Part shown: positions 10,212 through 64,000 of the stretch, in pieces
How the letters are laid out: every line of letters starts with the position of its first letter
Position numbering within the stretch: the stretch's first letter is position 1
Assembly: GCF_900105685.1 (NCBI RefSeq)
Contig: NZ_LT629781.1
Location: forward strand, 1,736,001 to 1,800,000
Source: Verrucomicrobium sp. GAS474
GTDB lineage: Bacteria; Verrucomicrobiota; Verrucomicrobiia; Methylacidiphilales; GAS474
DNA: 64,000 nt
Direction of reading: 5' to 3'
Translations under genes and position numbers: made by a program
The notes under the pieces: model-generated
Told to the model about the DNA's origin: nothing
The model's input: only the letters and a program-made list of their open reading frames with translations
The model's database searches: none

Positions 10212-12724
10212 GCCTTGCGGGAGAAAAAGAGGAGGAAGCCGAGGAGCCCCGCCGTGGCGAGCCACGCGAGGAGGGAGAGGCCGAGGCAGAGCCCGTACCA
10301 GAACGGGGCCTCGAAGCGGAAGGTGACGGCGGCCCCGGGATGGGGGACGGGGGCGGCGAGGTAGGCGCCGAGGGCCTTGCAGACGGGAAGGGGATGGCCG
10401 GCCTCGTCGAAGGCCTTCCAATCGGGATGCCAGTTCTCGGGGACGACGACCCAGGCGGCGTCATAGGGGGCCGGGGCGAGGCGGATCGTTTCGGGGTTGA
10501 GGTTGGCCCGGTGGGGGGCGAGGAGGGGAAGCCGCTGGGAGGAGGGAAGCGGGGAATGGTCCTGGTCGTTGTCGTTCTGCTGCGGGAGGGCGATGTCCTC
10601 GTTGGAGTCGAGGGCGGGCTCGATCGTCCAGCGGCCCTTGCCGTAGAGGGCGAGGGATTGGGCGGGGGAGGCCGTCCCGGGGGCGACGAGGCGGGTGCGG
10701 CGGACGGGGAGGGCGAGGGCGGGCGCTCCGGCCCCGGGGACGGCGAGGACGGCGAAGTTCGGGTTCTCCAGGACGGCGGGGAAGAGCTTGCGGAGCTGGT
10801 CGGCGAAGGGGGCGGGGAGATCGGGATCGGTCTTGTCGAGGACGACGTGGGAGACGCCCGCGGCGGCGAGGGCGGCGGCGTAGGCCTCCGGGGTCTCCCG
10901 CCCGGCGTCGGCGAGGGCGCGGCTCCATTCCGGCTGGAGGTAGCTCATCGCCGCCTCGGTGTGGAGGGGGCGGCCCGTCTGGGCGGGGAGCTCGAGGTAG
11001 AAGTAGCGGCCCGAGAAGACGAGGGCGGTGCCGGGCTCGGTCTCCGCGTGGTCGCGGAGGAAGGCGGCGGCCTTCCCGTAATCGGCGAGGACGGCCTCGG
11101 CCTTCGGCTTCCCCTCGCCGGCCGGGAAGCCGTCCCGGAAGAAGGCGGCGTGGTAGGTCGAGAAATCGGTGAGGGTGGTGGCGACGAGGAGGAAGGGCGC
11201 GAGGAGGGCGAGCCGCGTGCCGGGGCGGAGCCCGGTGAAGCCCTGCCGCCACGCCAGCGCCCCGGCGAGGGCGATGCAGAAGCTTCCCCCCATGTTCCAA
11301 AACGAGGCCGGGGCGCGGATCTGGCCGAAGCCGGGGAGATGTTCGACGAGCGGGAAGAGGGGGACGACGAGCCAGAAGAAGGCGAGGCCGACGAGAATGA
11401 GGCGACGTTTCCAAAGCCAGTCTGGATCTCGTTCCTGATCTGCGCTGCGAAATAACGAAAAGATCAAAAGGATCGGGAAAAGAAGAAGCCAGATGAAGGA
11501 AGATGTTGTTAGCCGTTCACGTTGCGAAGAAGTCAGGGAGGTGAAGGCAAAGGAAGCCAGCAGAATGACGAGGGCGGCCTGGGCGAGGAGGACGAGCCAG
11601 AGGAGGGGGATCGACCAGTTCGCCATCTCGGCGGAGTGGGAGAGCAATTGGCGATGGGCCCCGAGGGGGGAGCGGACGCCGTAGGAGAGGGTGCCGAGGA
11701 GGAGCGCCCCGCCGACGAAGAGGCGGAAGAGGCCGCCCTCCCGCGTCCGCAGCCAGTCGCGCTTCGCCGCCAGCATCGCCGCGATGCCGGAAACCCACAG
11801 GATGCCGGAGTAGAAGGCGTCGGCCGAGGTGTGGAGCCCCTCCGGTGCATCGGCGAGGAGGAGGCCGCCCCGGTCCCAGAGGGAGAGGACGCTCTTCAGC
11901 GTGAAGCCGTCCTGCCAGACGGTGAAGGGATCGTGGGAGAAGAAGGTCATCCACCGCTGTTCCCGCAGCAGCGGCAGGAGGGGGAGGAGGGCGAGGGGCA
12001 GGGCGACGAGGGCGGCCCGGCCCAGCCGCAGGGCGAAGGCGAGGCGCTCTTCCCGCGTCGCCGGGAACGCGAAGGCGGCCCACGCGGCGAAGAGGGCGAC
12101 GATCGGCATGAAGAGGAGGGCGACCTTCGTCGAGGTCAGCAGCATCGCCGAGGTCCCCAGCGCGAGGGCGAGGACGGCGGGCCAGCCCCCATCCTTTCCG
12201 GGACTCTTGGCCACCCGCAGAACGAGCCACAGGAGGAGGGGGGCGAAGGGGAAGCAGGCGACGGTGCCGAGGTGCTCCGCCTCCGCCAGCCGGATCGCCA
12301 TCTCCGGGCAGAGGAGGTAGAAGGCCCCGGCGAGGGCCGCCGTCGTCGCGCACCCCGTCAGCTCGGCGGCGAAGCCGTAGAGCATCAGCGCGGCGAGGAG
12401 GGCGAGGCCGAGGGAGAGGAGCTTGTAGGCCTCCGTCGGCCCGATGCCGAGGGGGGCGAGGAGGAAGCGGCCTCCCTCGAAGTAAAGGACCTGCATCGCG
12501 GTCTGCCACATCGGGGCGAGGCTGACGCCGTGCATGTAGCTGGGCGTCCACCAGGCGATCCCGCCCGAGGCCCGGCAGGCGCTTTCCCAATCGTGGAGCT
12601 TCGCCAGCGGCAGGAGGAGTTCCCGCGCCCCCGCCGCCTGCCCCAGCCAGCCGTGGCCGACGAAGCCGAGGAAGGCCAGGGCGAAGGCGAGGAGGAAGAG
12701 GAAGGGAGGGCGGGGAAAGCGCAT
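10208..12724 (-). CDS. Large polytopic membrane protein, YfhO/GT-C-like
   Basis: About 838 residues with some twelve hydrophobic segments up to around residue 510, then a soluble periplasmic-type domain and a last transmembrane helix near the C-terminus. The layout, with RAPASFWNMGGSF after a long membrane domain and a SHVVLDKTDPDL segment in the distal domain, resembles YfhO-type GT-C membrane glycosyltransferases. The start is set at ATG 12724 (MRFPRPPFLFLL), directly before the first helix; the longer frame adds 14 unlikely residues. The stop overlaps the GTG of the GT4 gene, so the pair is translationally coupled. It is divergent from kdsD. The substrate is unknown. Confidence 0.75.
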   Translation of the reverse strand: MRFPRPPFLFLLAFALAFLGFVGHGWLGQAAGARELLLPLAKLHDWESACRASGGIAWWTPSYMHGVSLAPMWQTAMQVLYFEGGRFLLAPLGIGPTEAYKLLSLGLALLAALMLYGFAAELTGCATTAALAGAFYLLCPEMAIRLAEAEHLGTVACFPFAPLLLWLVLRVAKSPGKDGGWPAVLALALGTSAMLLTSTKVALLFMPIVALFAAWAAFAFPATREERLAFALRLGRAALVALPLALLPLLPLLREQRWMTFFSHDPFTVWQDGFTLKSVLSLWDRGGLLLADAPEGLHTSADAFYSGILWVSGIAAMLAAKRDWLRTREGGLFRLFVGGALLLGTLSYGVRSPLGAHRQLLSHSAEMANWSIPLLWLVLLAQAALVILLASFAFTSLTSSQRERLTTSSFIWLLLFPILLIFSLFRSADQERDPDWLWKRRLILVGLAFFWLVVPLFPLVEHLPGFGQIRAPASFWNMGGSFCIALAGALAWRQGFTGLRPGTRLALLAPFLLVATTLTDFSTYHAAFFRDGFPAGEGKPKAEAVLADYGKAAAFLRDHAETEPGTALVFSGRYFYLELPAQTGRPLHTEAAMSYLQPEWSRALADAGRETPEAYAAALAAAGVSHVVLDKTDPDLPAPFADQLRKLFPAVLENPNFAVLAVPGAGAPALALPVRRTRLVAPGTASPAQSLALYGKGRWTIEPALDSNEDIALPQQNDNDQDHSPLPSSQRLPLLAPHRANLNPETIRLAPAPYDAAWVVVPENWHPDWKAFDEAGHPLPVCKALGAYLAAPVPHPGAAVTFRFEAPFWYGLCLGLSLLAWLATAGLLGFLLFFSRKA

Positions 12725-14656: not shown

Positions 14657-16291
14657 ATGAAAAACTCGGATTGGACGATTGGTAAGCGGATTCTCGTCGG
14701 CTGCGCACTCTTGATTCTGATTAATACCGTGGTCGGCATCTTCAGCTGCATCAGTATTTCAAAGTTGAAGAGCCATACGGAAAGCATCGTGACGAACTGG
14801 ATCCCGGGCATCAACGACGCGGGAGCGATCAACGCCGAAATCCGGACGCTGAATCGGTTGATCCTTCAGCATATTTTGGCCGATACCCCCGAAGCCAAGG
14901 CGAAGGTCGAGACGACCTTCAAGACCCAGCTGGAACTGGTCGACAAGCTGGTGAAGGATTACGGCCAGTCGATCGATCCCGAGGAAAGGGAACTCTATGC
15001 CGCGATGACGCGCACGGTCGCCGCCTATATCGCCCAGGCGAAGGTCGTCGAGGGCCTGAGCGCGGCGGGGCAGGCCAAGGAGGCGCACGAGACCTTCGAC
15101 CAGCAGATCGTGCCGCTCTACGCCGCCGCCCGCGATGCCGTCGTCGCCGAGAACAAATACAATCAGAAGGGCGCCGACGTCGAGGGGGCCGAGACCACCT
15201 CGCTGGCGAAGTTTGCCTTTGCCGCCGTCGCCTCCAGCGTGGTGATCGCCTTCGTCGTCGGGCTGCTGACCGCCTTCCTCAATATCCGGAGCATCACGAC
15301 GGCCCTGAACGCCGTTTCCAGCTCGATCAACGACGGTTCGGCCCAGGTCGCCTCGGCGGCGGGCCAGGTTTCCTCCAACAGCCAGTCCCTGGCCGACGGG
15401 GCGAGCGAGCAGGCCGCCTCCCTGGAGGAGACGAGCGCTTCCCTGGAGGAGATCAGCAGCATGACGCAGCGCAACGCCGAGAGCGCCCAGAGCGCCCAGG
15501 CCCTTTCCGGCCAGGCCCGCGCGGCGGCGGAGACCGGCGCCCTCCGCACCGGGGAGATGCAGCAGGAGATGGCCGCGATCCGGCAGGCCAGCGACGAGAT
15601 GGGCGCGGCCATCGCCGACATCCGCGCCTCCGGCAACAACGTCTCGAAGATCATCAAGACGATCGACGAGATCGCGTTCCAGACGAACATCCTGGCGCTG
15701 AACGCCGCCGTCGAGGCGGCCCGCGCCGGGGAAGCCGGGGCCGGATTCGCCGTGGTGGCCGAGGAGGTCCGTTCCCTCGCCCAGCGGAGCGCCGACGCGG
15801 CCAAGGAGACAGCCCAGATGATCGAGGCCTCGGTGGCCCAGAGCGCCCGGGGCGTCGAGGTGAACCAGCGGGTCGCGGTCCGCGTCGCCAGCATCGCGGA
15901 GAAATCGGCGGGCGTCCGCGTCAGCCTCGACGAGATCGTGACGAAGGTCCGCGAGGTCGACGCGCTGGTGAGCTCGATCGCCTCGGCCTCGAAGGAGCAG
16001 ACGGAAGGGATCGGCCAGGTGACCAAGGCGGTTTCGGCCATGGACAAGGTGACCCAGAGCAACGCCGCCGGGGCCGAGGAGACGGCGAGCGCGGCCCAGC
16101 AGCTCGACACCCAGTCCCAGGAGTTGAGCGCCGCCGTCGATATCCTCGCCCGGTTGGTCAACGGGAGCGGCGGGCAGGCTCCTTCGCCGGCGTCGGCGCG
16201 AATCGCCCCGTCTGCCCCGCGCGCCCGGGTCACGGCCAGCCGGACCGCCCTCCAGGGGTCTTCCCGCGACAACGCCTTTCGGAACATGTAA
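14657..16291 (+). CDS. Transmembrane methyl-accepting chemotaxis protein (four-helix-bundle sensor)
   Basis: Inner-membrane chemoreceptor. TM1 is about residues 12-32 ([19 protein letters not shown]), followed by a helical periplasmic region of about 140 residues that looks like a 4HB_MCP sensor, and TM2 is about 183-205. No clear HAMP domain is seen; the signalling domain begins soon after TM2. The hairpin [17 protein letters not shown] is intact, flanked by [18 protein letters not shown] and [17 protein letters not shown], both methylation-type helices. The start is placed at ATG 14657 just before the TM1 region; upstream in-frame ATGs at 14609-14633 would add a polar extension. cheW follows 32 bp later, so the pair probably forms one unit. 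Confidence 0.93.
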
Positions 16292-16323
16292 TCGGGCGGG
16301 AAACCTCAATCGAACAACCCTTG

Positions 16324-16839
16324 ATGCAAACGACTTTGAAACAGGATGAAGCGGCGGCCCCAAGCCTGGCGGGGAAGTATCTGACCTTCGGCCTGGGCCG
16401 GGAATCCTACGGGATCGGCGTGCTGAAGATCCGGGAAATCATCCGGATGTTCGAGATCACGCCGGTGCCGGAATTGCCGAAGCACATCCGCGGCGTCATC
16501 AATCTCCGGGGGAAGATCATCCCGGTGATCGACCTGCGGTGCCGTTTCGGCATTTCCCGGGCCGAGGGCGAATCGACGGAACGGAACTGCACGGTGGTGG
16601 TCCACGTGGAGCGGGAAAACGGCGAGACGTGCCTGATGGGGCTGATCGTCGACGCGGTGGAGGAGGTCATCCTGATCCGTGAGGAAGAGATCGAGCCGAC
16701 GCCCCGTTTCGGCGGGGAACTCAGCGCGAGGTACATCCTCGGCATGGTGAAGATCAAGGGGAAGGTGAAGACCCTCCTCGACATCGACGCGGTGCTGGCC
16801 GCCGATGCGGCCGAGATCCTCGCGGGAGCGGCTGCCTAG
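16324..16839 (+). CDS. cheW: Chemotaxis coupling protein CheW
   Basis: Scaffold that bridges receptors to the kinase CheA. The 171 residues form a single CheW domain: KYLTFGLGRESYGIGVLKIREI at the N-terminal strand pair, then PELPKHIRGVINLRGKIIPV, the hallmark receptor- and CheA-binding segment, and a C-terminal ILGMVKIKGKVKTLLDID. ATG 16324 is preferred over an in-frame TTG one codon earlier. It follows the transmembrane receptor by 32 bp and ends in a strong terminator. No cheA is in the window. Confidence 0.95.
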   Translation: MQTTLKQDEAAAPSLAGKYLTFGLGRESYGIGVLKIREIIRMFEITPVPELPKHIRGVINLRGKIIPVIDLRCRFGISRAEGESTERNCTVVVHVERENGETCLMGLIVDAVEEVILIREEEIEPTPRFGGELSARYILGMVKIKGKVKTLLDIDAVLAADAAEILAGAAA

Positions 16840-16870
16840 GGCCAATCTCCCTCCAATCGGGCGTTTTTCT

Positions 16871-16906
16871 GCCGCCGCTTCCCGCAAGGGGGGCGGCGGT
16901 TTTTTT
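16871..16906 (+). terminator. Intrinsic terminator after cheW
   Basis: Hairpin GCCGCCGCTTCCCGC / GGGGGGCGGCGG followed by seven T. It is nearly identical to the one after efp, including the loop. The T tract overlaps the stop codon of the convergent 4Fe-4S gene. Confidence 0.9.
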
Positions 16907-17504
16907 AGGCCTTCTTCCCGGCGGCAACGATCTCCTCGCGGACTTTGGCGATGAGATAATTGCAGGCCTCGGGGCAGGGGAGGGGGATCGCGTCGGGCGC
17001 GGTTTCCGGCGCGGGCGTTCCCGGGCCCCATTGACGGCGGCGGAGGCACACCGCCTCGCATGTCCCGGCGATGGCGGCGCGGAGCGGCTCGCCCTCGTCG
17101 CCGCAGGTCTGGACGAGGCGGTACATGCCGGTTTGCCGCCGCGCGGTTTCGGAGAAGGGGACGGGGGGACGGGGATGCGCCCAGAACGGGAGGGCCGAGG
17201 GGTAGAGGGCGTGGAGGGCCTCGACGAGGGCGGGGAGGACGAGGGGGTGGGTGCGCCAGCCGTTCCGGAGCCCCCGCGCGACGCGGAGGGGGCGGTAGGT
17301 CCCGCTGGCGTCGGCCTTCCCGATCTCGCGGATGGCGGGAAGGTCGGCGAGGCGGCGGAGGCTTTTTCCGGCGGCGTCGGCGTCGACGCGATGGCGCAGC
17401 TCCCATCCCGCCGGGGAGGGAAGCAGGACGAGTTCCCCGAGGAAGACCGGCTTCCCCTCCGAGGCCTGCAGCCGGGCCTCAAGCGTTTGCGAAATGGAGG
17501 GCAT
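16905..17504 (-). CDS. 4Fe-4S protein resembling the DR2241 C-terminal domain, partner of CbiX
   Basis: A 199-residue protein with a cysteine set in its last third: QTCGDEG, then AGTCEAVCLRRR, then PCPEACNYLIAKV, a spacing that could bind a 4Fe-4S cluster. In Deinococcus DR2241 a CbiX chelatase is fused to a stabilising domain and a C-terminal 4Fe-4S domain; here the chelatase and this protein are separate, overlapping by 26 bp in different frames, which supports a split version of that enzyme. The family match is from memory of motif order, not a search. The N-terminal 110 residues (with WELRHRVDADAAG) have no motif I recognise. The start ATG lies inside the end of cbiX. Confidence 0.6.
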   Translation of the reverse strand: MPSISQTLEARLQASEGKPVFLGELVLLPSPAGWELRHRVDADAAGKSLRRLADLPAIREIGKADASGTYRPLRVARGLRNGWRTHPLVLPALVEALHALYPSALPFWAHPRPPVPFSETARRQTGMYRLVQTCGDEGEPLRAAIAGTCEAVCLRRRQWGPGTPAPETAPDAIPLPCPEACNYLIAKVREEIVAAGKKA

Positions 17505-18318
17505 CGAATTTGTCGACTTGGGCGACGATGACGTCGGCGATCCGGGGGTCGGTGCCGAGGGCGGGGGCGTACCAGAGCCGCCGCCCGTCGATCGCGTGGG
17601 GATTGAGGACGCCCTGCTCCCGCACGTTTTCGGTCATGCCGAGGAGGACCGGGATGTCCTCGTAGGAGTGGAGGCCGTCGGAGATGAAGAAGGGGACGGC
17701 GACGACGTTCGGCTGGGCGGCGATCGTCCGCCACTCCTTGATGAACGGGGCCTGCTCCATGAAGGCGGCGTGGCAGGCGGCGTAGGGACGGGGCCGGAGG
17801 GCGGCGATCCGGGCGGCCTGCTCGTAGACGATCTTCGTCGAGTTCTCGTTCAGGCCGGTGCCGTGGCCGATGACGAAGAGGGCGGTCGTTTCGGGATCGA
17901 GCGGCGGGACCCCCGAGGCGCGGACGACGACGGCGGCGCGCTCCAGCAGGACGTCGGTCATCGAGGGGTGGAGGCCGACGGGCTCGCAGTAGCAGAGGGT
18001 CTTGCCGTCGCGCCGGGTGATCGGGGAGCCGGGCTCGAGGCCGAGCTCGCGGGGGATCACCTCCTCGGTGAAGTAGCCGGAGCTGATGAAGTCGGGAACG
18101 ATGTAGACCCGTTCGGCCTCGACCTGGTCGAGGACGAAGCGGAAGTTCGGCTCCTCCTTCCAGAAACATTCGTGGACTTCGGCGAAGAGGCCCTGCTCCC
18201 GGATGCGGTCGGCATGGCGGTAGGTGGGCGTGCTGGAATCGGCGTTCAGCGTCGAGCCGTGCCCGGCGACGACGAGGGCGGCGCGGCGACGGGGCTGGGA
18301 TTCACGGGAGCCGGACAT
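17479..18318 (-). CDS. cbiX: Sirohydrochlorin chelatase, long CbiX type
   Basis: Inserts a divalent metal (Co, Fe or Ni) into sirohydrochlorin for cobalamin, siroheme or related cofactors. The 279 residues contain two chelatase halves, each with its metal-ligand signature: VVAGHGST (His20) and VIGHGTG with a following LNENS. ACHAAFMEQAPFIKEW and VPFFISDGLHSYEDIP also fit the family. The coding end overlaps the start of the 4Fe-4S partner gene, indicating coupled translation. It lies downstream of cheX and the microprotein on the same strand, 67 bp after the latter's stop. Which metal it handles cannot be told from sequence. Confidence 0.88.
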   Translation of the reverse strand: MSGSRESQPRRRAALVVAGHGSTLNADSSTPTYRHADRIREQGLFAEVHECFWKEEPNFRFVLDQVEAERVYIVPDFISSGYFTEEVIPRELGLEPGSPITRRDGKTLCYCEPVGLHPSMTDVLLERAAVVVRASGVPPLDPETTALFVIGHGTGLNENSTKIVYEQAARIAALRPRPYAACHAAFMEQAPFIKEWRTIAAQPNVVAVPFFISDGLHSYEDIPVLLGMTENVREQGVLNPHAIDGRRLWYAPALGTDPRIADVIVAQVDKFDALHFANA

Positions 18319-18385
18319 GAGGCATCCACACTATCGCCCGGGAGGGCCGGGGAGCAAGGCGGGAGGAGGAAGGACGGACGCCGTC

Positions 18386-18538
18386 CTAGGGATTGAACAT
18401 CTTCAGAATGTCGTCGATGTCATTCTGATTGTACTTGTCGTCGTCCTGCGACTGGTCGAAGGCGAGACCCTTTTCCTTTTCGGGAATGGCGATGGTCTCG
18501 TCGTGTTTTAGCAGACTCTCGCGTCCTTCATCGGCCAT
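18386..18538 (-). CDS. 50-residue acidic microprotein with a CheZ/FliM-like CheY-binding tail
   Basis: A small open frame starting MADEGRESLL and ending NQNDIDDILKMFNP. It is very acidic, with a hydrophilic middle, and lacks a signal or membrane segment. The C-terminal segment resembles the CheY-phosphate-binding helix of CheZ (SQDQVDDLLDSLGF at the C-terminus) and the N-terminal helix of FliM (SQ.EIDALL). It lies 123 bp downstream of cheX on the same strand. I see no Shine-Dalgarno sequence. Coding status is inferred from the motif and its position; the proposed role is presenting CheY-P to the CheX phosphatase, or serving as another CheY-P target. Confidence 0.55.
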   Translation of the reverse strand: MADEGRESLLKHDETIAIPEKEKGLAFDQSQDDDKYNQNDIDDILKMFNP

Positions 18539-18661
18539 GATTTCGATACGATAAGGAACCGAGGCGAAAACGCAAGGAGTGAAGATACCTAAGACTTAAG
18601 GCGGAAAGGAGGTCGAGATCGCCTCCATCGCACCCCTGTCGGAGGGGCGCTTTTCAGCCAC

Positions 18662-19147
18662 CTAGTCGGCCTTGACGAGGGCGAGGACGTGGAACGTCGC
18701 GCCCGAATCGACGACCTTGAACGTGAAGGCGCGGGAAATGGTGAAGCCCTTGCAGCTCACCGAAATCGAGGTGCCGCGGAGGACGTTCGGGATGCTGAGG
18801 GCCGAGTTGTATCCCTTGTCGGCCATGTGGGTCTTGATGTTCCCCGTCACCATGTTGGTGAACTCGCCGAGGACGTCGTTCTCCGCCCCCTCGTCGACGC
18901 CCGCCTCGTCGCCCGTGATGATCCCGGCCACCCGGCGGGAGAGGGCAGCGGGAAGGGAGAGATAGATGACCCCGGCGATGGCGGGACCGGCGAAGCTGAC
19001 GTTCCCCGTCACCTCGTGGAGCGCGTCGGCGGGATTGCCCGAAACGTCGATCGACTCGACCGGGGCGACCTCGAGGGAGGCCATCGTCGAGAAGATGCGG
19101 ACCACGGCGGAATTGAGGGAGGCGATGATTTCGGCGGCGACGTCCAT
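18662..19147 (-). CDS. cheX: CheX-type CheY-phosphate phosphatase
   Basis: Dephosphorylates CheY-P and so ends the chemotactic signal. The 161 residues match CheX: a glycine-rich strand (GNVSFAGPAIAGVIYLSLP) followed by the signature E-x2-N helix in DVLGEFTNMVTGNIKT, with Glu95 and Asn98 as the predicted catalytic pair. One ExxN motif is present, as in CheX, rather than two as in CheC. It is upstream of the small CheY-binding-like protein and cbiX on the minus strand, and divergent from the aldolase gene. Dimerisation through the edge strands is known for the family. Confidence 0.9.
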   Translation of the reverse strand: MDVAAEIIASLNSAVVRIFSTMASLEVAPVESIDVSGNPADALHEVTGNVSFAGPAIAGVIYLSLPAALSRRVAGIITGDEAGVDEGAENDVLGEFTNMVTGNIKTHMADKGYNSALSIPNVLRGTSISVSCKGFTISRAFTFKVVDSGATFHVLALVKAD

Positions 19148-58730: not shown

Positions 58731-59888
58731 TCAGAGCTTCAGCCGATAGATCCGGAACGGCGGGCGGAAGCGGTTTTGGCCGTCGTGGAAGGCGGGCATG
58801 AGGTTGATCTGGGAGCAGGTGAGGTAGAGGTAGCCGCCGTGGAGGCTGTAGCTGTCGGGCCAGAGGAGGCGGGAGGAGTCCTGGATGAGGCTCAGCTTCT
58901 GGAGGTCGGGGGTGATCTTGATGATGCGGTTATTTTCGATGTCGCCCAGGTAGAGGTTGCCCTTGGCGTCCATCTCCATGCCGTCGGTGGCGACGAAGCG
59001 GCCGAGGGATTCGACCGCCGATTCGATTGGCATCTCGGGGACCTTCGGATCGCGGAGGAGCTCGGTGTCGATGCGGTAGAGTTTGTTGTCGGTGAGGGGC
59101 TTGAAGTAGAGCTTGTTCCTGTCGGGGCTCAGGGCGATGCCGTCGGAGTGGATCTTCGCCGGGCCCGCGGCGGTGGCCAGTTCCCGCCCGTCGACGACGA
59201 AGCGGTAGGCGGGGTCGGAGAGCGTCGAGGGATGGCCGTGGAGGACGAGGCGGGATTCGCCGGTGGCGAGGTTGAGGACGACGATCCCGCCGTTGCTCGA
59301 CGAGGTGAGGTAGGCGAAGCCCCGGGGGCCGTCGACCCGGATGTCGTTGAGATAGCTCTTCGCCCCGGCGACGGCCTCGGGGAAGCGGTAGACGCGGGTG
59401 ACCTTGTTCGTCTTCAGGTCGATGCGGACGACCTTGTTCGCGTGCTGGTAGACGTCGCCGAGGCCGATCCCGGCGGAGTCGACGACCCAGAGGGAACCCC
59501 AGTCGTCGGCGTAGACGGCCTGGGCGCAGACGAATTTATCCTGCCCGTTCTCGCCTTTCTGGAAGCTGTTCCACGTGGCGTCGGGGTAGGGCTTCGTCGA
59601 GCCGTCCTTCGCGACCTCGACGACGGAATAGCGGTGGGCGTCGAGCCAGTAGGGGTAGCAGACGAAGAGCCGCCCGCTGACCGAGACGGCGACGCCGGTG
59701 AACTGGTAGGTCGGATCGGCGAAGACTTCCTCGAGTGCCGGGGACGAAGGGGGAACGGGGGCCGGTGCGGGCTTGGGAGCCGGTGCGGGCGCGGCAACAA
59801 CGGCAGTCGAGGGGGTGTCGGCCCGCAGGGCGGCGGCTCCGGCAAGAAGGAGTAGGAGGGAGACGAGGGCGGGGAATCGGAAAGGCAT
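58731..59888 (-). CDS. Secreted beta-propeller protein, major royal jelly protein/SMP-30-like
   Basis: 385 residues: signal peptide, a short Ala/Pro linker, and a six-bladed propeller. LNDIRVDGPRGFAYLTSSSN and DGIALSPDRNKLYFKPLTDN with GLGDVYQHANKVVRIDL are the marks of the MRJP (yellow) family, related to gluconolactonases. Bacterial members are taken to be sugar-lactone or unknown hydrolases. Start at ATG 59888 (MPFRFPALV), one turn before the hydrophobic core; an ATG three codons upstream is equally possible. Not obviously linked to the ABC genes upstream. Confidence 0.8.
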   Translation of the reverse strand: MPFRFPALVSLLLLLAGAAALRADTPSTAVVAAPAPAPKPAPAPVPPSSPALEEVFADPTYQFTGVAVSVSGRLFVCYPYWLDAHRYSVVEVAKDGSTKPYPDATWNSFQKGENGQDKFVCAQAVYADDWGSLWVVDSAGIGLGDVYQHANKVVRIDLKTNKVTRVYRFPEAVAGAKSYLNDIRVDGPRGFAYLTSSSNGGIVVLNLATGESRLVLHGHPSTLSDPAYRFVVDGRELATAAGPAKIHSDGIALSPDRNKLYFKPLTDNKLYRIDTELLRDPKVPEMPIESAVESLGRFVATDGMEMDAKGNLYLGDIENNRIIKITPDLQKLSLIQDSSRLLWPDSYSLHGGYLYLTCSQINLMPAFHDGQNRFRPPFRIYRLKL

Positions 59889-59948
59889 GAAGACCATCTT
59901 AGCACAGGTGGGCGGAGGTTTCTATCGAGAGGATGATCCCGGAGCGGA

Positions 59949-60674
59949 TCAGGAAAGAAGGAACTGCCGGAGGCGGTCGCTCTGCGGGGTGGAGAGGATT
60001 TCCCGGCCTCCGGTTTCGGCGAGGCGGCCCTGGTCGAGGAAGTGGACGATGTCGGCATGGGCGCGGGCGAAGCCGAGGGAGTGGGTGACGAGGGCGAGGG
60101 CGATGCCCTGCTCGCGGAGGGTGAGGAGGTGGTCGAAGAGGATGCGCGCTTGTTCGAGGTCGAGGGCCGAGGTGATCTCGTCGAGGAGGAGGCACTGGGG
60201 CTTCAGCGCCAGGGCGCGGGCGAGGGCGGCCCGCTGGCGTTGGCCGCCGGAGACGGCGTTCGGGTGGCGGGAAAGGAAGGACTCCATCCCGAAGGTCTGC
60301 GCGAGGGGGGCGATGAGGTCGGCGATCTCCTCCTTCGATTTTCCGGCGCTCACGAGCGGGAGGGCGATGTTCTCCCGGAGGGTGAGGTGGGGCCAGAGGA
60401 AGAACTGTTGGAAGACGACGGTGAGCTTCGGCCAGGGCGGGGCGGGATTCTCCGCGTCCGGGAAGAGGTAGGGGACGCCGTCGATGCGGAGGGTGCCGCT
60501 GTCGGGCTTCTCGACGAGGGAGAGGGCGCGGAGGAGGGTCGACTTGCCGCCGCCGCTCGGGCCGACGATGGCGGTGATTTCCCCGGCGCGGAGTTCGAGC
60601 GAGAGGTCGTCGAGGACGGGTTGGCCGTCGCGCGTTTTCCGCAGGTTCTCCGCTTTCAGGAAAGGCGCGCTCAT
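59949..60674 (-). CDS. Polar amino-acid ABC transporter, ATP-binding subunit
   Basis: 241 residues. Walker A is GPSGGGKSTLLRALS, the Q-loop region VVFQQFFLWPHLT, the signature SGGQRQRAALARALA and Walker B CLLLDEITSALD, followed by the H-loop VTHSLGF. The HisP/GlnQ type is indicated by the short length and LWPHLTLRENI. Start at ATG 60674, 5 bp after the stop of the permease gene. It is the last gene of the operon. Confidence 0.93.
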   Translation of the reverse strand: MSAPFLKAENLRKTRDGQPVLDDLSLELRAGEITAIVGPSGGGKSTLLRALSLVEKPDSGTLRIDGVPYLFPDAENPAPPWPKLTVVFQQFFLWPHLTLRENIALPLVSAGKSKEEIADLIAPLAQTFGMESFLSRHPNAVSGGQRQRAALARALALKPQCLLLDEITSALDLEQARILFDHLLTLREQGIALALVTHSLGFARAHADIVHFLDQGRLAETGGREILSTPQSDRLRQFLLS

Positions 60675-60679
60675 TGTTC

Positions 60680-61357
60680 CTATTGTTCCGAGAGGTCGCG
60701 GGTGAAGCGGTGCTTGAGCCAGAGGGCGAGGCCGTTGAGCGGGAGGCAGACGGCGAGGAAGAGGACCCCGAGGGCGGTGTAGATCTCGACGGGGCGGTAG
60801 ATCGTCGAGTTGATCCGCTGGGCGACGCGGAAGATCTCCTCGACCGAGATGAGGCTCGCGAAGAGGGTGCACTGCAGCATCGTGACCTGGGCGGCGAGGA
60901 GGCCGGGGAGGATCTGCCGGAGGACGAGCGGGGCCTCGATGCGGCGGAGGATGGCGCGGCGGTCCATGCCGCAGACCTCGCCCGCGATCACGTATTGCCG
61001 GGGGAAGTCGGTGACGGCGTGGCGGACGATGTCGGAGACGAGGAAGACGTTCACCACCGAGAGGGCGAAGGCGGCGGTGTAGAAGGGATCGATGACGACA
61101 TCGAGGAGGCTCTGGAGCGGGTAGTGGAGCCAGAAGAGGAAGACGAGGAGCGGCATCCCGCCGAGGACGAAGGAGGCCCCGCGCACGGGCCAGCCGACGC
61201 TCTTCGGCAGGCGGGCCGCGGCGACGCCGAGGAGGCTGCCGAGCGCGAGGCCGCAGCTCCAGACGACGGCGCAGAGCTTCAGCGTGACGAGGAGGCCGCC
61301 CGCGAGCCCTTCCCGGTAGCGGACGAGGATGTCGGCGACGGAGTGGAGGAAGTCCAC
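60680..61357 (-). CDS. Polar amino-acid ABC transporter, permease
   Basis: 225 residues with about five transmembrane helices and a GVAAARL.. ..GGLLVTLKL opening like HisM/GlnP. The coupling segment with the EAA-like motif is VCGMDRRAILRRIEAPLVLRQILPG. Only one permease gene is present, so the channel would be a homodimer. It lies 9 bp after the binding-protein gene and 5 bp before the ATPase gene. Confidence 0.9.
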   Translation of the reverse strand: MDFLHSVADILVRYREGLAGGLLVTLKLCAVVWSCGLALGSLLGVAAARLPKSVGWPVRGASFVLGGMPLLVFLFWLHYPLQSLLDVVIDPFYTAAFALSVVNVFLVSDIVRHAVTDFPRQYVIAGEVCGMDRRAILRRIEAPLVLRQILPGLLAAQVTMLQCTLFASLISVEEIFRVAQRINSTIYRPVEIYTALGVLFLAVCLPLNGLALWLKHRFTRDLSEQ

Positions 61358-61366
61358 GGCTTGCCT

Positions 61367-62215
61367 TTATTTGGGAAGTTTTCCCGGCACTCGGTAAGGG
61401 GTCGAGAGGGGGAGGAGCGCGCCGGGGAAGGGCTCGTATTGCTTGATGAGGGTGTCGACGTAGCCGAGGTCGACGAGCTCGGCGAGGGCGTTGTTCAGCA
61501 TCGCCTTGAACTCGGGCTGGCCGCGCGGGATGAGCATGATGTTCGGGCAGACGCCGACGGGGGTGCCGTTGGAGACCTCGCGGAGGGTGCCGGGATTGTG
61601 GTCGAGGAAGTACTTGGCCGAGGCGGCCTCCTCGAAGACGAGGTCGGCCTTCTTCGTCGAGACGGAGAGGAGGAGGGAGGCGATGTCGGCGTTCTGGGGG
61701 AGGGAGTAGGTCTTGGCGTTGGGGAACTTGCTCTTCGCAATGACCTCGGTGACATCGCCGTCGACGGTGGCGATTTTCAGGTCGGGGTTGGCGGAGAGGA
61801 TTTGATCGAGGGACGCTCCCGGGGTGAAGCGCTTGTCGTCGGGCCGGGCGTAGGCGTTGACGGCGCTGTAGAAGAGGGGCATGGAGAAGTCGGCGAGGCG
61901 GGCGCGGGCGCCGGAGGCCCAGGCCATCATGACGACGTCGTAGCGGCCGGTCGCCAGCCCCTCGATCATCGTGCTCCACTGGCCTTCCTCCACGTAGGCG
62001 GTCTTCAGCTGGAGGTTGGCGGCGGCCTTGTCGAGGGCCTCGACGGCGATGCCGGTCAGCTTGCCGGTGTTGGGGTCCTTGATGACGCCGGGGGGCGAGG
62101 CGAGGTAGCCGACGCGGATCGTCCCGCTCCTCATCACCTTGTCGTAGGTGCTTTCGGGGGCGGCGAAGGCGAGGAAGGGGAGAAGGAGGAGGGCGAGAAG
62201 GGGAAGGGACTTCAT
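61367..62215 (-). CDS. Amino-acid ABC transporter substrate-binding protein
   Basis: 282 residues: a signal peptide (LPLLALLLLPFLAFA) and a type-II periplasmic binding fold of the family 3 kind (KVMRSGTIRVGYLASPPG, YDVVMMAWASGARARLADF, with a late GVCPNIMLIPRGQPEF). The ligand is a polar amino acid or similar, not deducible further. Its ATG overlaps the stop of the upstream EH_signature-like gene as TGATG, so expression of the transporter appears coupled to that gene. Confidence 0.9.
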   Translation of the reverse strand: MKSLPLLALLLLPFLAFAAPESTYDKVMRSGTIRVGYLASPPGVIKDPNTGKLTGIAVEALDKAAANLQLKTAYVEEGQWSTMIEGLATGRYDVVMMAWASGARARLADFSMPLFYSAVNAYARPDDKRFTPGASLDQILSANPDLKIATVDGDVTEVIAKSKFPNAKTYSLPQNADIASLLLSVSTKKADLVFEEAASAKYFLDHNPGTLREVSNGTPVGVCPNIMLIPRGQPEFKAMLNNALAELVDLGYVDTLIKQYEPFPGALLPLSTPYRVPGKLPK

Positions 62216-63234
62216 CAATCGAGCTGGTTGATCCGGTCGGGCCGGTCTTCCTCGGGCTCGTGCCAGGAGTGGTCGGCCTCGCCGGGGCGGCCGGGGGTGT
62301 TGCCGAAGAAGTGGGCGTTGAGGCGGCGGATGGGGGAGGGGGCGGTCTTGCCCTGCCAGGGGTCGAGGACGAAGCAGTAGATTTCCTTCCGGAGGTCGGG
62401 GAAGAGGAGGTCGACGCCGGTCGGGGCGGTGGCGGAGGGGGCGAGGCTCCAGTCGACGAAGGCGGAGAGGGTCCCCTCGGCGACGGCGACGGGGTTCTCG
62501 GCGAGGCGCTCGATCGCCTTGACGTAGGCGGCGCGGCCGAGGCCCCGGGTCAGGAGGGGGCCGGTGATCCCCATCTCGGCGAGGAAGTCCCGCGCCGATT
62601 GCTTCGTCGAGAGGAGGATGGTCTGGGCGATCTTCTTCGGGGCGAGCTCGACGGAGAAGAGCTCGTGGTCGAAGTCCTGCTGCCGCCAGAACTCGAGGTC
62701 GGTGAAGGTCTTTTGGAGGAGGGTCTTGCGGAGGAGCTTCGCGATCCACTCGATCCCCTCGCGGGAGGGGTCGAAGTCGGCGAGGTAGATCGGGATGAGG
62801 CGGCGGTGGTCGCGGGAGAACTTCGCCCGCTCCAGCCGCTGCCGGTAGCGGATCTGGAAGCGGGAGTGGAGGAGGAGGGGCTGGGGGGACTCGTACCAGA
62901 GGACCTGCCAGACGGCGCTCCAGTCGAGCTCGCCGATCTCCTCCCAGTGGTTGGTCTCGGCGGCGGCGAAGAACCGCTCGGCGAGGGCGGCGCGGTCGGC
63001 GGCGGGGAGGGGCTCCGGGAGGGTGATCGAGCCGACGTCGCGGAGGAGGGCGGTCCCGGCCTGGACGGTGCGGGGCGTGCCGAGGGAGAAACGCTGGCGC
63101 TGGAGGTTCTTCGTCTGGAAGGCGATCCGCTCCCGGAGGGTGCCGGGGAGGTTGCGGGGGATCGAATCGGGCAAGGCGCTGCCCGTCTTGCTTTTCTCCG
63201 GCTCCTGGGGCTGGGGCGTCGCCTTGGGACTCAT
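62215..63234 (-). CDS. EH_signature-like protein (ZorC-like)
   Basis: A 339-residue soluble protein. The middle and C-terminal parts (IYLADFDPSREGIEWIAKLL, then a Trp segment, ELAPKKIAQTILL and DFLAEMGITGPLLTRGLGRA) follow the order I recall for EH_signature domains, the hallmark of ZorC in type I Zorya anti-phage systems. It is shorter than described ZorC (about 560 residues). The gene immediately upstream is a ZorB-like MotB/OmpA gene, 13 bp apart, which strengthens the call; motif comparison was by eye only. The stop overlaps the ABC binding protein gene. No zorD helicase is downstream. Confidence 0.55.
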   Translation of the reverse strand: MSPKATPQPQEPEKSKTGSALPDSIPRNLPGTLRERIAFQTKNLQRQRFSLGTPRTVQAGTALLRDVGSITLPEPLPAADRAALAERFFAAAETNHWEEIGELDWSAVWQVLWYESPQPLLLHSRFQIRYRQRLERAKFSRDHRRLIPIYLADFDPSREGIEWIAKLLRKTLLQKTFTDLEFWRQQDFDHELFSVELAPKKIAQTILLSTKQSARDFLAEMGITGPLLTRGLGRAAYVKAIERLAENPVAVAEGTLSAFVDWSLAPSATAPTGVDLLFPDLRKEIYCFVLDPWQGKTAPSPIRRLNAHFFGNTPGRPGEADHSWHEPEEDRPDRINQLD

Positions 63235-63247
63235 GATCGGAGTGGAA

Positions 63248-64000
63248 TCAGGGGTTGCCCGTGGCGCCGTTGCCGGAGGGGAGGGACGCGGTGGTGGCGC
63301 TCCCGTTGCCGGTCTCGATCGCGCCCTGGGGCGGGAGGGGCGGGGCGGCGGGCCCGCTCCCGCCGGGGCTGCCGGGATTGGCGCTGCCGCCGGTGCCGCC
63401 GGAGGCGGACGGGGCGGCGGGGGAGCCGGGGAGGGAGATGGGGGGCATGGCGAAGAACTTCGGCGCGGCGAGGACGAAGCGGATGTCGATGCGGCGATTG
63501 AGCTTGCGGCCGTCCTCGGCGTTGTTGTCGCCGATGGGGCGGTATTCGCCGTAGCCGCTGATGCCGAGGAGCGATTGGTCGTGGCTGCTGAGGAGCTTCC
63601 CGAGGTCGGGCTCGGTGGCGATGATGGTGCGGTAGGTGGTGAGGGCGCGGGCGGTGGAGAGGTACCAGTTGTCGGGGAACTCCGGGGTGTGGATCGGCTG
63701 GTTGTCGGTGTGGCCCTCGATGTAGATCGAGTCGAGGCGGGAGGTGACGGGGGAGTTCTGGAGGATGGTCTTGATGATCGTCGAGACCTGCCGGATGACG
63801 TCCTCGCCCTTCGGCTTCAGGACGGCCTGGCCGACGTCGAAGAGGAGCTCGTTCGGGAGGTGGAGGACGCCCCGCTCCTCGTCGACCTGGATGACGATGT
63901 TCTTCTTGGCGGCCTCGGACTGGATCTTGCGGAGGAGCTCGGCGCGGATGCGGTCGGAGTTCGTGAGGATATCCTGGGCGGTGCGGAGCTGCCGGATGCT
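63248..64000 (-). CDS. ZorB-like MotB/OmpA-domain protein, 5' end beyond the window
   Basis: Partial: 250 residues are visible and the N-terminus lies past 64000. A coiled helix (AQDILTNSDRIRAELLRKIQ) precedes an OmpA-type peptidoglycan-binding domain: ERGVLHLPNELLFDVGQAVL, YIEGHTDNQPIHTP, DNWYLSTARALTTYR, GISGYGEYRP and NRRIDIRF. The NWxLS and SGYGE..NRRIDLRF pattern is closer to ZorB than to OmpA or MotB of flagella. About 60 residues of Gly/Pro/Ser/Ala tail follow the domain. A ZorA-like motor gene would be expected just upstream, outside the window. Confidence 0.75.
   Translation of the reverse strand, partial: SIRQLRTAQDILTNSDRIRAELLRKIQSEAAKKNIVIQVDEERGVLHLPNELLFDVGQAVLKPKGEDVIRQVSTIIKTILQNSPVTSRLDSIYIEGHTDNQPIHTPEFPDNWYLSTARALTTYRTIIATEPDLGKLLSSHDQSLLGISGYGEYRPIGDNNAEDGRKLNRRIDIRFVLAAPKFFAMPPISLPGSPAAPSASGGTGGSANPGSPGGSGPAAPPLPPQGAIETGNGSATTASLPSGNGATGNP

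What the first reader, a model, noticed from the sequence alone, without database searches (positions are those of the whole stretch)
59949..64000. Zorya-like zorB-zorC pair coupled to an amino-acid ABC transporter
The last two genes look like ZorB (OmpA/MotB stator subunit) and ZorC (EH_signature). In known type I Zorya, zorC is followed by the zorD helicase. Here the stop of the zorC-like gene overlaps (TGATG) a periplasmic binding protein gene followed by permease and ATPase. Either this is a rearranged defence locus that has lost zorD, or a distinct motor-plus-EH_signature system that works with a transporter.
Basis: partly seen in the sequence, partly recalled or inferred. Interest (0 to 1): 0.75.

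Follow-up and report, generated by a model that had tools for sequence, protein, structure and literature searches.

The report
Cut-down Zorya motor with transporter genes
Two related bacteria carry the motor of a known anti-virus system without its known DNA-attacking parts, in one gene row with an amino-acid importer; this hints that the motor may have been put to another use, but that is untested.

Summary
Beyond 64000 there is a true zorA, so the locus is zorA-zorB-zorC'-SBP-permease-ATPase, six genes on one strand with gaps of -1 to 36 bases. ZorA and ZorB match Zorya profiles strongly. The 'zorC' gene is not EH_signature: it has no PF15611 match. It matches only the N-terminal half of ZorC, stopping about 110 residues before the E and H positions of full-length ZorC. 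No zorD lies nearby; the genome's one similar helicase is an ordinary SNF2 protein also found in a congener without the locus. The short zorC is no fresh wreck. A congener has the same order, the same stop and the same TGATG overlap at 74% identity, and a codon model shows purifying selection up to the last 70 codons. A third congener lacks zorA, zorC' and the SBP together. So this is a conserved, reduced Zorya derivative in one gene row with an importer. My best guess is that the motor serves or gates the importer; defence with a passenger transporter is the chief rival.

The parts
63248..64000 (-). zorB (368 aa; 3' part inside the window, gene continues to 64354 in window numbering). zorA (558 aa) lies just upstream, outside the window, at 64391-66067 in window numbering = L001:7391-9067(-).
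   Evidence: PADLOC ZorB1 1e-61 and ZorA1 2.4e-70; NCBIfam antiphage_ZorA_1 230.1 bits against a cut-off of 190; OmpA PF00691
62215..63234 (-). zorC' : N-terminal half of ZorC, 339 aa, without the EH half
   Evidence: 4 PADLOC ZorC models, best 6.4e-26 over positions 19-235 of 467; no Pfam match; alignment with 4 full ZorCs
61367..62215 (-). family-3 amino-acid binding protein, 282 aa, signal-peptide-like start; ATG overlaps the zorC' stop (TGATG)
   Evidence: PF00497 2.4e-17; boundaries
60680..61357 (-). ABC permease, 225 aa, GTG start
   Evidence: PF00528 1e-11; GlnP/Ehu-type models below their cut-offs
59949..60674 (-). ABC ATPase, 241 aa, GlnQ-like, last gene of the conserved block
   Evidence: PF00005 3.3e-32; GlnQ model 173.9 bits, below its cut-off of 379; start; also the end of the block in the congener

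Best explanation
A reduced derivative of type I Zorya that has become one gene row with a polar-amino-acid ABC importer. Shown: six genes in tight order; a ZorAB pair with the usual domains; a ZorC that ends before its EH half; no zorD; the same order, and the same short ZorC with the same stop, in a second species. Inferred: ZorA and ZorB still form the 5:2 ion-driven, peptidoglycan-gripping motor. With the EH half of ZorC and ZorD missing, the DNA-attacking arm is gone. The remaining ZorC half is the adaptor that reads the ZorA tail. Here the motor's output goes to the envelope and the importer (gating or energising uptake, or adjusting it to cell-wall state) instead of to phage DNA.
For: ZorA/ZorB profiles; ZorB SDLM aspartate, EGHTD and NRRID motifs kept in 4 of 4 aligned ZorBs. 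zorC' covers only about residues 1-290 of the 560-residue Klebsiella ZorC, whose residues 400 and 443 are E and H. Three canonical loci from plasmids have full ZorC (433-560 aa) followed by zorD or a helicase. Congener with the same order, stop and TGATG, its ATPase then leuA on another contig. Codon model omega: zorA 0.042, zorB 0.024, zorC' 0.060, its last 70 codons 0.087 with p=4e-6 against omega 1. zorA, zorC' and SBP are absent together from a third congener. The gene after the ATPase differs between the two species (MRJP-type in one, a nucleotidyltransferase in the other) while the block stayed whole. In print, deleting any type I component ends defence, and ZorABC was among the tested constructs (PMC11890865, section 6, part 1 of 2, read).
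Against: No experiment and no structure of a complex. Only two species of one genus have it, so order may persist by descent alone. Nearest plasmid relatives of the SBP sit in ordinary amino-acid operons without Zor genes. Simple counting gives a weaker signal for zorC' (dN/dS 0.54), and neutral drift left no stop in 62 of 2000 simulations. ZorC homology rests on PADLOC models and a 95.7% hhalign match to residues 60-223 only; NCBIfam and PDB phmmer found none. A physical link of motor and importer is pure inference, and co-transcription is inferred from spacing alone.
Confidence: 0.4

Rival explanations
1. Still an anti-phage system: ZorAB plus the short ZorC work with an effector encoded elsewhere in the chromosome, and the importer is a passenger that shares the promoter.
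For: ZorAB strongly conserved; ZorA passes the NCBIfam antiphage_ZorA_1 cut-off. A chromosomal SNF2 helicase with 39% identity to a ZorD core exists. Another genome of the phylum (G241) has zorABC with full ZorC and no zorD beside it.
Against: That helicase type is also in the congener without the locus and in other genomes (6 of 8 tested, own included), matches only the ZorD helicase core, and falls far below the ZorD cut-off (266.6 against 1500). Of the neighbours scanned, none matches a defence model at E<=0.001 apart from cross-matches of the ABC ATPase.
Confidence: 0.32
2. A new kind of defence in which the importer is the effector: on phage attack the motor, through the short ZorC, alters amino-acid or ion flow and stops growth.
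For: Tight conserved coupling to the importer and loss of the DNA arm.
Against: The importer looks ordinary; no such effector was found in the papers searched.
Confidence: 0.12
3. A relic: a Zorya locus decaying after losing its effector half, beside a transporter by chance.
For: NG86 dN/dS of zorC' is 0.54, the highest of the four genes tested; half the ZorC and all of ZorD are missing.
Against: Same stop, same overlap and no frame damage in two species at 74% identity. Codon model omega 0.06, third-position G+C 0.95.
Confidence: 0.1

Closest known systems
Zorya type I (ZorA-ZorB-ZorC-ZorD)
   Same: ZorA, ZorB and the N-terminal half of ZorC in the same order and tight spacing
   Different: ZorC ends before its EH half; no ZorD; an ABC importer follows instead; ZorA is 558 aa against 675-779 in the three canonical plasmid loci
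Zorya types II and III (ZorE; ZorF-ZorG)
   Same: share ZorAB with another effector
   Different: no ZorE, ZorF or ZorG model matched any neighbour scanned with PADLOC
Polar-amino-acid ABC importers (SBP family 3, GlnP/GlnQ-like)
   Same: binding protein, one permease, one ATPase in one row
   Different: joined to zorABC'; nearest plasmid relatives of the SBP (31.6% identity) sit beside arginase and amidase genes
Energised envelope motors ExbBD, TolQR, MotAB
   Same: 5:2 ion-driven motors that serve uptake, envelope or motility (PMC12905483 and PMC12505986, passages)
   Different: sequence is ZorAB, with a long cytoplasmic ZorA tail and an OmpA-type ZorB domain; no TonB/TolA partner was seen in the gene row

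Membership tests
Zorya type I | ZorA of the Zorya kind | tested here: met
   PADLOC ZorA1 2.4e-70; NF033914 230.1 bits over its cut-off of 190, while the type I ZorA1 equivalog scores 45.8 against 750
Zorya type I | ZorB with TM aspartate and OmpA-type domain | tested here: met
   PADLOC ZorB1 1e-61; SDLM aspartate and PG-domain motifs invariant in 4 of 4; the type I ZorB1 equivalog of NCBIfam is below cut-off, 28.1 against 400
Zorya type I | ZorC with EH_signature half | tested here: not met
   no PF15611; alignment ends near Klebsiella residue 290, before E400 and H443
Zorya type I | ZorD beside ZorC | tested here: not met
   SBP follows; only a generic SNF2 helicase about 1 Mb away
Zorya type I | Protects against phages | not testable with these tools
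   needs plaque assays
Zorya type I | Ser/Thr ring of ZorA around the ZorB aspartate | tested here: inconclusive
   conserved T and S columns in A2, not mapped onto a structure
Zorya type II or III | ZorE, or ZorF and ZorG | tested here: not met
   no such PADLOC match among the cluster and neighbour proteins scanned
Polar-amino-acid ABC importer | family-3 SBP, BPD permease and ABC ATPase together | tested here: met
   PF00497, PF00528, PF00005 over cut-off
Polar-amino-acid ABC importer | Named substrate | tested here: inconclusive
   every NCBIfam equivalog shown is below its cut-off

The most novel reading that the evidence does not exclude
A ZorAB motor that no longer serves DNA attack but is wired, through the N-terminal half of ZorC, to an amino-acid ABC importer: a Zor system with a transporter as its output, whether for nutrition, envelope sensing or defence.
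Probability: 0.3. Interest if true: 0.8.

Novelty: new variant of a known kind. Interest (0 to 1): 0.47.

Why it matters
In the accounts read (PMC11890865, PMC12904381) Zorya motors recruit DNA-attacking effectors. A conserved locus that keeps the motor and half of the adaptor but has no known DNA-attacking part would show which part of ZorC talks to the motor, and that the motor can be reused. It gives a natural truncation with which to test the open question of what ZorC does. No report of it turned up in the searches made, in an open-access library that lacks the main structural paper on Zorya.

Tried and rejected
AlphaFold2 of zorC' with two sequences gave mean pLDDT 35.4, so no fold search was run. 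Two viral-contig scans (ZorC alignment, ZorA alignment) matched 67 and 14 stretches and confirmed none. tblastn of the short ZorC found nothing in plasmids; a full ZorC found nothing in phages. The single genome-contig scan gave one relative, so phyla outside this one were not surveyed further, apart from plasmid, phage and viral records. The ML codon fit for the SBP ran to its boundary (distance without limit) and its omega is not used. Repeats and terminator-like sites in the gene row were unremarkable; no tRNA in L001. Considered and rejected: a frameshift hiding the EH half (the SBP starts on the last base of the zorC' stop, so nothing is left between); an orphan EH half elsewhere; the SNF2 helicase as zorD; the MRJP-type gene as part of the block (not there in the congener).

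Full report
What was checked. The window is G000:C1:1736001-1800000 of a one-contig 3.76-Mb genome. I took 12 kb beyond 64000 (L001). On the minus strand the order is zorA (558 aa), zorB (368 aa), zorC' (339 aa), family-3 binding protein (282 aa), permease (225 aa), ATPase (241 aa); gaps are 36, 13, -1, 9 and 5 bases.

Identity of the parts. ZorA: PADLOC 2.4e-70, NCBIfam antiphage_ZorA_1 over its cut-off; best PDB match 8qyk, ZorA. ZorB: PADLOC 1e-61; best PDB match 8vvn chain B, an entry that PMC11890865 gives as type I ZorAB of Shewanella. zorC': 4 PADLOC ZorC models, best 6.4e-26, but only to position 272 at most of 432-467; its congener behaves the same, 4 models, positions 6-271. No Pfam, NCBIfam or PDB sequence match of note. 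Yardsticks: the full ZorCs of Azospirillum and of G241 match the best models to near their ends, and PF15611 hits residues 252-447 of the G241 protein. Aligned with four full ZorCs (433-560 aa), zorC' ends near Klebsiella residue 290, while residues 400 and 443 there are E and H (that these are the EH residues studied in print is recalled). The last few zorC' residues are scattered by the aligner and carry no weight.

ZorD. In three plasmid loci ZorC is followed at once by ZorD or a helicase. Here the SBP follows. The genome's only match to Azospirillum ZorD is an SNF2 helicase about 1 Mb away, covering residues 471-948 of 970. 6 of 8 genomes tested, own included, have such matches, among them G001, which lacks the locus.

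Conservation. A 5.3-kb contig of a congener (record title 'uncultured Verrucomicrobium sp.'; L004) has zorA, zorB, zorC', SBP and the start of the permease, with the same TGATG. Another contig of that genome carries the ATPase and then leuA, as in the window except for the genes between; the two contigs were not joined. Identities: zorA 501/558, zorB 279/345, zorC' 235/317, SBP 223/283. G001, same genus, has no match to zorA, zorC' or SBP; its leuA has other neighbours. In 60 genomes (own and relatives) zorC' is found in 2, the window's own genome included.

Is the short gene kept by selection? A pairwise codon model (F3x4) gives omega 0.060 for zorC' (likelihood ratio 139.8) and 0.087 for its last 70 codons (21.3). 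NG86 counting gives 0.54, against 0.41 for zorB, 0.42 for SBP and 0.21 for zorA. Third-position G+C is 0.95, which makes counting under-rate and the model perhaps over-rate silent change; both lie below 1. Neutral simulation gave a mean of 3.3 stops, none in 62 of 2000 runs. I read this as a working short gene, not a wreck.

Distribution. ZorC profile: 2 of 387 phylum genomes. ZorC alignment: 5 of 384 class genomes, of which G000, G002 and G241 are convincing and two are marginal. ZorA profile: 16 of 387; only G000 and G241 score better than E 1e-11, the other 14 are weak and mostly in the coiled-coil part of the model. G241 has zorABC with a full ZorC and no zorD within the 19 kb read. SBP: 72 of 387 with a match, the best after its own 48.7 bits and 26% identity, so it has no close kin in the sample.

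How it may work. In print ZorAB senses envelope disturbance and recruits ZorC and ZorD to DNA (PMC11890865, passages and section 6, part 1 of 2; PMC12904381, passages), and each type I part is needed. With half of ZorC and all of ZorD gone, that output cannot run as described there. What remains is a motor, half an adaptor and an importer. I think reuse for the importer the most likely single account (0.4), with defence by an unlinked effector close behind (0.32).

Known or new. ZorA and ZorB pass as Zorya proteins; the locus fails two defining tests of type I. I file it as a new variant derived from Zorya, not as a type I member. No report was found; the library lacks the main Zorya structure paper.

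Limits. One genus, two species. No structure, no expression data, no phage test. Phyla beyond this one were seen only through plasmid, phage and viral-contig records and one genome-contig scan.

Noticed in passing
58731-59897 (-): A major-royal-jelly/Yellow-type beta-propeller gene (PF03022, 91 bits) 51 bases after the ATPase; in the congener the gap between ATPase and leuA instead holds a small nucleotidyltransferase (PF01909).
   Followed up: partly
L001:9167-9188 (outside the window, about 100 bases upstream of zorA): A 22-base block identical in both species, and a second conserved block next to the zorA start; a promoter-like site for the divergent sulfate-binding gene overlaps the first.
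   Followed up: partly
L001:9271-10314 and 10359-11462 (+): Two tandem sulfate/thiosulfate-type binding-protein genes divergent from zorA; no sulfate permease genes were recognised among the ORFs listed next to them.
   Followed up: no
L009 (G241):8642-12773 and 14658-18998: Another genome of the class has zorABC with a full EH-type ZorC but no zorD beside it, and a 1446-aa nSTAND-like protein upstream on the same strand that matches PADLOC PDC-M54A.
   Followed up: partly
63248-64354 (zorB, partly outside the window): ZorB has a long coiled-coil-like stretch between membrane helix and OmpA domain, also seen in the G241 and Azospirillum ZorBs, and a Pro/Gly/Ser-rich tail found only in the two congeners of the four compared.
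   Followed up: partly
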